Source of the DNA: Candidatus Doudnabacteria bacterium
GTDB taxonomy: Bacteria > Patescibacteriota > Doudnabacteria > UBA920 > O2-02-FULL-48-8
Direction: 5' to 3'
DNA length: 47,101 nucleotides
Assembly (NCBI GenBank): GCA_019659055.1
Contig: JAIFWV010000001.1
Span: 70,123-117,223 of the forward strand
Both the position numbers and the translations under genes were made by a program. The notes below the pieces were generated by a model that did not search any database, was not told the origin of the DNA, and was given only the letters and a program-made list of their open reading frames with translations. Below, in pieces: positions 34,186-35,798 of the stretch (positions are counted from its first letter, which is position 1; each line of letters begins with the position of its first letter).

Positions 34186-34764
34186 CTAGTGGAGCTTCTC
34201 TCCACGAGCAAGCATTTCAATCAGGTCATTAATACGCTTTTTTCGGGTTTCAATTTTCTTGGCAGTCGTGATGCGCCAGATGATGGCGTAGGAATTAGCC
34301 TTGCTTAAATTTTGAAAAAAGGCTTTTGCTTTTTTGTTCTTCTTCAAGGCTGTAAGGAAATCCTCCGGCGCTACCGCGCTTTTGGGGGATGCATAGGCAT
34401 TGTCCCACCGGCCGTCTTCCTTGGCGGCCGCAATTACCGCAAGTCCTGCGGGCATCATTTTCTTCTCAAGGATAAGCTTCGTGACTTTGTCGCGGTTGAT
34501 CTGCGACCACATGCTCTTGGATTTGCGCGGAGTAAACTTCTGAATGTACGATTTCTCATCGAACCGGTTGACCAGGCTGTCGATCCAGCCAAAACACAAA
34601 ACTTCGTCCAAAGCTTCCAGATAATTCATCATTTTGACGCCTGAGGCTTTCTTATAAAACCGAATCCAAATCCCCTGGGACTTAGCGTGATTGATCCTAA
34701 GCCATTTGCGGAATTCTTGCGACGTTTTAAATGCTAAAATTGGGTTTCCGTCTTTTGCTTTCAT
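34186..34764 (-). CDS. YdeI/OmpD-associated family protein
   Basis: FKTSQEFRKWLRINHAKSQGIWIRFYKK...EALDEVLCFGWIDSLVNRFDEKSYIQKFTPRKSKSMWSQIN. Confidence 0.8.
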   Translation of the reverse strand: MKAKDGNPILAFKTSQEFRKWLRINHAKSQGIWIRFYKKASGVKMMNYLEALDEVLCFGWIDSLVNRFDEKSYIQKFTPRKSKSMWSQINRDKVTKLILEKKMMPAGLAVIAAAKEDGRWDNAYASPKSAVAPEDFLTALKKNKKAKAFFQNLSKANSYAIIWRITTAKKIETRKKRINDLIEMLARGEKLH

Positions 34765-34806: not shown

Positions 34807-34881
34807 TGGGGCGTCGCCAAGCGGTAAGGCAGGGGCCTTTGAAGCCCCCATTCGTAGGTTCGAATCCTACCGCCCCAGCCA
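34807..34881 (+). tRNA. tRNA-Gln (anticodon TTG), encoded CCA
   Basis: TGGGGCG/CGCCCCA acceptor, anticodon stem GGGGC/GCCCC with loop CTTTGAA, GTAGG-TTCGAAT-CCTAC. Confidence 0.93.
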
Positions 34882-34906
34882 ATAAGATTTTCAATAATGA
34901 TATAAA

Positions 34907-35041
34907 GTAGGATTCGAACGGGTTGAAGCGAGGCAAGTCATCAGACGCAGCCGAGCGATCGGAAAATGTCCTGTGAACATTTTCCGCAACCCTGTAGTAG
35001 CCGCCTAAGCGGCGGAACTCGAATCCTACCGCCCCAGCCAA
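34907..35041. repeat. structured element ending in a 23-bp duplicate of the tRNA-Gln 3' end
   Basis: Direct repeat tcgaatcctaccgccccagccaa at 34860-34882 and 35019-35041; terminal inverted repeat gtaggattcga/tcgaatcctac; internal hairpins ggaaaatgt/acattttcc and gccgc/gcggc. Confidence 0.85.
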
Positions 35042-35054
35042 AAGAAATTCGCAT

Positions 35055-35798
35055 ATGCAATTCAGTCCAACTAATAACATTGTTAAACTCTGCCTTCAGG
35101 GCATGGGCATGGAAGACAAAGGTAAGCCTGAAGAAGCAAGTAAATTATTTCTCCAAGCCTGGGATGAAGCCACAAACAATTCTGAAAAATTTCTCGCCGC
35201 TTTCTACATATCCCGGCATCAAAAAAATACTTCCGATAGGTTAAAGTGGCTTACAACTGCTTTACAGTTGGCATTGGAACTAAACGACCATTCGGTTGAG
35301 AGTGCTTTTCCTTCTCTGTACTCAAGCATTGCCAAATGCTATGAGGATCTAAACGATCCTCACGAGGCAAATAAGAATTATAAATTAGCAGCTTCTTTTA
35401 AAAATAAACCGACCGACACCGGTCCTTTTTATCATGGAACGAAAGCAGATTTGAAAGTGGGCGATTTGCTGACAACAAAAAATGATTCTAACTATAAATC
35501 CGACCTAAAAATGAATCATATTTATTTCACCGCGCTCGTGAATGGGGCGGGTCTTGCTGCGGCATTGGCCAAAGGTGAAGGACGTGAACGTGTCTATGTA
35601 GTCGAACCAACGGGAGACTTTGAAGATGACCCGAACGTTACCAATAAAAAATTCCCGGGCAATCAGACACGTTCATATCGCTCCGAATCGCCACTGAAAA
35701 TTGTTGGCGAAGTAGTAGATTGGGAACGGCTTATACCTGAGGAACTTCAAAAATTTCGTGACAGATTAGCCAACACCAAAGAAAATATTATAAATTAG
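35055..35798 (+). CDS. arr: TPR-like N-terminal domain fused to rifampin ADP-ribosyltransferase (Arr)-like domain
   Basis: GPFYHGTKADLKVGDLLTTKNDSNY...NHIYFTAL...GEGRERVYVVEPTGDFEDDPNVTNKKFPGNQTRSYRSESPLKIVGEVVDW. Confidence 0.88.
   Translation: MQFSPTNNIVKLCLQGMGMEDKGKPEEASKLFLQAWDEATNNSEKFLAAFYISRHQKNTSDRLKWLTTALQLALELNDHSVESAFPSLYSSIAKCYEDLNDPHEANKNYKLAASFKNKPTDTGPFYHGTKADLKVGDLLTTKNDSNYKSDLKMNHIYFTALVNGAGLAAALAKGEGRERVYVVEPTGDFEDDPNVTNKKFPGNQTRSYRSESPLKIVGEVVDWERLIPEELQKFRDRLANTKENIIN

What the first reader, a model, noticed from the sequence alone, without database searches (positions are those of the whole stretch)
34860..35041. tRNA-Gln 3' end duplicated by a compact structured element
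Seen: 23-bp direct repeat tcgaatcctaccgccccagccaa at the tRNA 3' end and again 159 bp downstream. The element between has terminal inverted repeats made of the T-arm sequence itself (gtaggattcga ... tcgaatcctac) and nested hairpins (gggttg/caaccc, ggaaaatgt/acattttcc, gccgc/gcggc). Tyrosine integrases classically duplicate tRNA 3' ends, but the 159-bp content encodes nothing plausible. Inference: a minimal element that targets or mimics a tRNA end, or a remnant att site.
Basis: partly seen in the sequence, partly recalled or inferred. Interest (0 to 1): 0.68.

Follow-up and report, generated by a model that had tools for sequence, protein, structure and literature searches.

The report
Mobile structured RNA element at tRNA ends
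A 159-base non-coding insert behind a tRNA gene turns out to be one copy of an apparently undescribed family of tiny, RNA-shaped mobile elements in ultra-small Patescibacteria, which insert at tRNA ends, leave the tRNA intact by duplicating its tail, and carry an arm that matches whichever tRNA they sit behind.

Summary
A covariance model of the core alone, containing no tRNA sequence, finds 67 distinct copies in 21 Patescibacteria genomes: five in the window's own genome, 16 of 49 genomes in its order (Ca. Doudnabacteria), and five genomes elsewhere in the phylum. Copies lie on the tRNA strand, behind at least 13 kinds of tRNA and tmRNA. The usual order is target T - spacer - antisense of T's first 9-17 nt - folded core - second copy of T (about 20 nt, T-loop to CCA).

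The core shows strong compensatory evolution (22 of 23 pairs; 0/500 shuffles). Wobbles are G-U rather than A-C (38:7), so it folds as the tRNA-sense strand.

It is an insertion. One copy sits at the 3' end of a nuclease-domain gene with a 20-bp duplication and an arm matching that gene; 12 relatives lack it there. tRNA-Arg/recG is occupied here and empty in a relative.

Rfam, phages, plasmids and IMG/VR patterns give no match. A one-contig genome with eight copies shows no reverse transcriptase, Y1 transposase, tyrosine recombinase or Cas1.

Best reading: a new family of protein-free, RNA-structured mobile elements. The mobilising enzyme is unknown.

The parts
34807..34881 (+). intact host gene tRNA-Gln (TTG)
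   Evidence: ARAGORN; Rfam RF00005
34860..34882 (+). T-left: first copy of the target (T-loop to CCA plus one base), part of the functional tRNA
   Evidence: exact 23-nt direct repeat
34883..34906 (+). spacer S (AT-rich here; an intrinsic-terminator-like hairpin in many relatives)
   Evidence: sequence; no promoter or terminator pattern scored inside it here
34907..34919 (+). arm a: antisense of the tRNA-Gln T-arm (13 nt; its last base is the near-constant first C of the core); 34907-34917 form helix P1 with 35019-35029
   Evidence: inverted repeat; fold; own-versus-permuted match across 67 elements
34919..34994 (+). conserved core (R1 match 85.3 bits, E 1.9e-21): P2 GGGTTG 34920-34925 / CAACCC 34987-34992; P3 34928-34956 with tandem GA/GA internal loop; P4 hairpin 34960-34986
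   Evidence: covariance model; compensatory changes
35000..35013 (+). P5 hairpin GCCGC/GCGGC (variable, absent in short relatives such as L123)
   Evidence: fold
35019..35041 (+). T-right: second copy of the tRNA-Gln 3' end, ending the element; interpreted as target-site duplication
   Evidence: same layout in most other copies

Best explanation
The block is one copy of a family of short (about 105-190 bp per unit), protein-free mobile insertion elements of Patescibacteria whose transcript-strand sequence folds into a conserved structure. SHOWN: copies occur at many different tRNA genes, at tmRNA and at one protein gene; each is usually flanked by two copies of about 20 bp of its target (for tRNAs, T-loop to CCA), so the host gene stays functional; an arm just before the core is antisense to the first 9-17 nt of the local target; the structure is under selection on the tRNA-sense strand; orthologous sites are occupied in one genome and empty in others. 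INFERRED: the folded RNA (or the same strand as single-stranded DNA) is the mobile form or is recognised by whatever moves it; insertion opens the tRNA gene around T-loop position 56/57 and near the 3' end, which duplicates the tail; the antisense arm is rewritten at each new site from the neighbouring target copy, for example by fold-back template switching across the P1/P2 hairpin, rather than carried unchanged from the donor. The mobilising activity is not identified; it is either supplied in trans or by the host replication/repair machinery.
For: Core-only model R1 (no tRNA sequence in it) hits 67 non-redundant places; 46 of them have an ARAGORN tRNA ending 14-99 nt upstream on the same strand (my count). 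Arm/target match: mean longest complementary run with the upstream target 9.06 nt versus 4.29 for permuted partners, maximum of 200 permutations 5.27. Structure: 97.8% of cells paired, 22 of 23 pairs with double-sided changes, 0/500 shuffles, slid controls fail. G-U 38 versus A-C 7 among non-Watson-Crick cells, p = 3e-6. Insertion: L121 in G005 has CATGAG-TGTAAATTTAGGCATTTGGAG-[128 bp]-GTAAATTTAGGCATTTGGAG-GGGTAG; 12 relatives carry the gene without it, several ending HECKFRHLE-stop. tRNA-Arg(gcg)/recG holds a copy in the window's genome and is empty in G005; tRNA-Gln(TTG) with the same neighbour gene is also empty there. Cores do not follow tRNA identity: same tRNA in different genomes 0.681 mean identity versus different tRNA 0.698; the nearest core to the window copy sits behind tRNA-Asn of another genus (92%). 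Patchy spread with 1-8 copies per genome. Cores 90% alike (L097 tmRNA, L095 tRNA-Gly) have entirely different arms, each matching its own target.
Against: No mobilising enzyme found. No very recent transposition pair (identical cores at different targets) was seen; best cross-target identity is 96% within G026, and some of those sites are decayed. All genomes are assemblies from metagenomes or unnamed; no expression data. The arm and T-right also pair with each other, so part of the matching could come from selection for hairpin P1 after insertion. In two G350 copies the element sits in the D-loop of a duplicated 5' tRNA part, without the antisense arm, so the layout is not universal.
Confidence: 0.72

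Rival explanations
1. A host-useful RNA gene that travels with tRNAs: the transcript is read through from the tRNA, and the matched ends let it fold onto the tRNA (an alternative tRNA whose T-loop is replaced by the core) or borrow tRNA processing for stability or regulation.
For: Strong structural selection on the tRNA-sense strand; always on the tRNA strand; in the fold of the whole transcript the tRNA 5' acceptor strand pairs with the distal copy so that the core sits in an enlarged T-arm; G350 copies lie in a D-loop.
Against: Only 6 of 47 tRNA genes carry it in the one-contig genome G005, different tRNAs in different genomes, absent from many relatives; one copy is at a protein gene; many copies have a terminator-like hairpin between tRNA and core.
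Confidence: 0.15
2. An RNA- or ssDNA-guided element in the style of IS200/IS605 guides or group II introns: the antisense arm is a pre-existing guide that selects the target by pairing, and it changes only by mutation.
For: The arm lies just 5' of the structured foot and pairs across the insertion point, to 10-14 nt of the intact tRNA T-arm, longer than its match to T-right. tRNA T-loops differ at few positions, so little retargeting is needed.
Against: tmRNA and ORF copies have completely different arms although their cores are 81-90% like tRNA copies. No Y1 transposase or RVT_1 reverse transcriptase in several multi-copy genomes.
Confidence: 0.2
3. Remnant att sites of tyrosine-integrase islands or prophages in tRNA genes, reduced to a small scar.
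For: T-loop-to-3'-end direct repeats at tRNA and tmRNA genes are the classical layout (established knowledge of integrase sites).
Against: Conserved co-varying content at more than 13 kinds of tRNA, matched antisense arms, no integrase found in G005, G001 and G009, no phage or plasmid match.
Confidence: 0.03
4. A degenerate second tRNA or a chance tandem repeat.
For: The 3' copy is tRNA sequence.
Against: The interior is a separate conserved family, and only the tRNA tail is duplicated.
Confidence: 0.02

Closest known systems
Integrative elements in tRNA genes (tyrosine-recombinase islands and prophages)
   Same: Insertion at tRNA/tmRNA 3' parts starting in the T-loop; the tRNA is restored; a 3' fragment is left at the far end.
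   Different: About 110-190 bp, no genes, structured RNA-like content, many tRNA species per genome, an antisense arm matched to each target; no tyrosine recombinase found in G005.
IS200/IS605 elements and REP/RAYT-type palindromic elements
   Same: Small structured single-strand-like elements; a guide-like sequence 5' of a hairpin foot pairs with the target.
   Different: Target duplication of about 20 bp, arm of 9-17 nt, no Y1_Tnp in G005, G026, G003, G008, G012, G018.
Group I / group II introns and SINE-like retroelements
   Same: Structured sense-strand RNA; pairing of an internal sequence with both flanks; target duplications as in target-primed insertion.
   Different: 80-nt core with no Rfam match; RVT_1 absent in G005, G026, G003; the whole target tail is duplicated.
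Casposons / Cas1-type integration
   Same: tRNA or gene 3' ends as targets, duplication of the target (from general knowledge).
   Different: No Cas1 in 20 of 21 genomes tested; no terminal inverted repeats apart from the target-matched arm.

Membership tests
Tyrosine-recombinase integrative element | integrase gene in the element or genome | tested here: not met
   no gene in the element; PF00589 not found in one-contig genome G005 with 8 core copies, nor in G001 and G009
Tyrosine-recombinase integrative element | direct repeats from the T-loop to the tRNA 3' end | tested here: met
IS200/IS605 or REP/RAYT | HUH Y1 transposase available in the genome | tested here: not met
   PF01797 absent in G002, G003, G005, G008, G012, G018, G026, G350 although they carry copies
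IS200/IS605 or REP/RAYT | no target duplication | tested here: not met
   20-32 nt duplicated at the target
Retroelement (group II intron, retron, SINE-like) | reverse transcriptase in the genome | tested here: not met
   PF00078 absent in G000, G003, G004, G005, G008, G009, G012, G018, G026; transient supply by a phage is not excluded
Known structured RNA family | match to an Rfam model | tested here: not met
   only tRNA in the window block and no credible match to the element in 13 further loci
Casposon / CRISPR integration | Cas1-type integrase | tested here: not met
   PF01867 in 1 of 21 genomes
DDE or serine-recombinase transposon (MITE) | terminal inverted repeats and a related autonomous element | tested here: inconclusive
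   no long dispersed IS-like repeat recognised in G005 self-comparison; DDE and serine recombinase families were not searched
Degenerate tRNA | cloverleaf remains of the same tRNA | tested here: not met
   interior matches no tRNA and is shared among unrelated tRNAs

The most novel reading that the evidence does not exclude
A self-retargeting mobile RNA: a protein-free folded RNA (about 80-nt core) that inserts its own copy into tRNA genes, regenerates the tRNA tail from the target, and rewrites its antisense arm to fit each new site, so that one core can spread through most tRNA species and occasionally into protein genes, without any recombinase known today.
Probability: 0.3. Interest if true: 0.92.

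Novelty: categorically new. Interest (0 to 1): 0.78.

Why it matters
If right, bacteria have a class of mobile element that codes for nothing, is smaller than two tRNAs, is shaped by selection on RNA structure, and solves the 'safe target' problem by inserting where it can restore the tRNA. The target-matched arm would be a natural case of an element copying its target into itself. It is common enough in Doudnabacteria to be tested directly (target duplication, empty sites, transcripts), and it raises a concrete question: what moves it in a genome without detectable reverse transcriptase, Y1 transposase, tyrosine recombinase or Cas1.

Tried and rejected
Rfam searches: no family apart from tRNA; weak hits were antisense of tRNA or below threshold. 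Phage and plasmid collections and three IMG/VR pattern scans: nothing usable; the three contigs matching the 17-mer in IMG/VR do not match the core model. Pattern hits in Burkholderia, Oscillochloris, Amphritea, Pseudomonas and Synechococcaceae are chance: no or insignificant model scores. Reverse transcriptase, Y1 transposase, tyrosine recombinase and Cas1 as resident mobilisers: presence does not track the element and all four are undetected in G005. A TnpB/Cas12-type guide-RNA reading (20-nt guide at the 3' end, TTC before the target) was considered and dropped because the tmRNA and ORF targets are not preceded by TTC. A tRNA-like-structure reading was dropped because the core holds no partner for the acceptor strand. 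The idea that spacer S is a fixed element part was left open: S and the downstream flank share 12 nt in L012, so part of it can be duplicated trailer. Literature searches found no description.

Full report
OBSERVATION. The 159-nt block folds far better than shuffles (z = -5.1), and no 23-nt direct repeat occurs in 1000 shuffles. Rfam knows only the tRNA.

A FAMILY. A DNA search of the window's own genome (900 kb, 39 contigs) gave a second copy behind tRNA-Arg with the same spacing but with ends that match tRNA-Arg. A search of 145 relatives and inspection of the hits showed the same design behind Gln, Asn, Glu, Ser, Pro, Lys, Leu, Arg, Tyr, Trp, Met, Gly and Asp tRNAs. A covariance model R1 was then built from the core only (GGGTTG...CAACCC), leaving out everything that resembles tRNA. 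It finds five copies in the window's genome, copies in 16 of 49 genomes of the order, and in five further genomes among 380 sampled across the phylum, up to seven per genome. Named contigs place the family in Candidatus Doudnabacteria and other Patescibacteria.

ARCHITECTURE. Copies read, on the tRNA strand: T-left (inside the intact tRNA) - spacer, often with a terminator-like hairpin - arm a - core - optional P5 hairpin - T-right. T runs from T-loop position 54-59 to CCA, often exactly to CCA. The arm is complementary to the local target for 9-17 nt and always follows the variable T-loop bases of intact sites (for example TTCGATC gives GATCGAA, TTCAATT gives AATTGAA). Across 67 elements the longest complementary run with the own upstream target averages 9.06 nt against 4.29 for permuted partners (maximum of 200 permutations 5.27). 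Tandem arrays and truncated extra units occur (L016, L041, L014, L048, L046, L123).

STRUCTURE UNDER SELECTION. In 66 distinct cores 97.8% of cells are paired and 22 of 23 pairs show changes on both sides; no shuffle reaches this and slid pairings fail (the unfitted 25-sequence set gives the same). Among non-Watson-Crick cells G-U outnumbers A-C 38 to 7, so the structure works in the tRNA-sense strand: RNA, or that strand of DNA. The unpaired tandem GA/GA loop in P3 is almost invariant.

MOBILITY. (i) In G005 a copy sits at the 3' end of a PD-(D/E)XK-domain gene: 128 bp plus a 20-bp duplication of TGTAAATTTAGGCATTTGGAG, with the arm CCTGAATTTACA matching this new target (one G-U). Twelve relatives have the gene without the insert, several ending HECKFRHLE-stop. 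(ii) tRNA-Arg(gcg)/recG carries a copy in the window's genome and none in G005; tRNA-Gln(TTG), next to the same neighbour gene but in the other orientation, is also empty in G005. (iii) In the one-contig genome G005, with 47 tRNA genes and one tmRNA gene, six tRNAs and one protein gene are occupied; tRNA-Tyr has a remnant. (iv) Core similarity does not follow tRNA identity (same tRNA 0.681, different tRNA 0.698), and nearest neighbours share a genome more often than chance (27 of 66 against a mean of 3.9, maximum 17 in permutations). The window core is closest to one behind tRNA-Asn in another genus.

HOW IT MAY WORK. Shown: insertion, duplication of the target tail, matched arm, sense-strand structure. 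Inferred: because tmRNA- and ORF-borne cores are 81-90% like tRNA-borne ones while their arms are completely different and fit the new target, the arm is probably made from the target at or after insertion. Fold-back template switching at imperfect palindromes is a known way to perfect hairpin arms (PMC8794818, PMC7202029, read at abstract level only) and would act on exactly the P1 arm. The alternative, a pre-existing guide that must match before insertion, is kept as a rival. No mobiliser was found: G005 shows no RVT_1, Y1_Tnp, Phage_integrase or Cas1, and its long repeats that were inspected code for surface-like proteins, not transposases. DDE and serine recombinases were not tested, and G005 is rated 95% complete.

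VARIANTS. In G350 two copies lie in the D-loop of a duplicated 5' tRNA part upstream of the intact tRNA. Independent of the model, other tRNA-tail copies with different inserts occur in these genomes, including a two-hairpin insert between GGTTC and GANTC behind three G005 tRNAs. The T-loop of a partial tRNA copy thus seems to be a landing site for more than one small element.

KNOWN OR NEW. Defining features of tyrosine-integrase islands, IS200/IS605-REP elements, retroelements and casposons were tested and not met (membership table). Searches of the held open-access papers found no description; subscription papers and preprints are not covered. I rate the family as categorically new with moderate confidence; a specialist may prefer 'new variant of non-autonomous mobile element' once the helper is known.

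LIMITS.

Noticed in passing
window 35055-35798 (+): The gene 14 bases after T-right encodes a protein with a rifampin ADP-ribosyltransferase (Arr) domain at its C-terminal end (PF12120); no homologue in the other 13 family genomes.
   Followed up: partly
window 34186-34764 (-): OmdA/YdeI-family protein gene (PF13376) next to the tRNA-Gln.
   Followed up: no
L046 2673-2948 (-), genome G026: A tRNA gene upstream of an element array is interrupted by a group I intron (RF00028) with what looks like an HNH-type homing-endonuclease ORF, which is why ARAGORN misses the tRNA.
   Followed up: partly
G005:C1 485321, 668092, 684012: A second, unrelated insert type: GGTTC-(two hairpins, about 40 nt)-GANTC...CCA directly behind tRNA-Gly(tcc), Ser(cga) and Ile(tat).
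   Followed up: partly
L111 and L115 (G350): Core in the D-loop of a duplicated 5' tRNA part; the same tRNA-Asn also has a diverged 3' element with another core.
   Followed up: partly
G005, whole one-contig genome: No Phage_integrase-domain protein at all, so apparently not even XerC/XerD.
   Followed up: no
L104, L070, L064, L192, L060: tRNA tails (some with longer 5'-truncated tRNA parts) duplicated behind tRNAs with inserts that the core model does not recognise.
   Followed up: no
L010 1626-1690 and L046 copies: In elements behind tRNA-Asn an extra domain of about 65-85 nt splits T-right between T-stem and acceptor strand.
   Followed up: no
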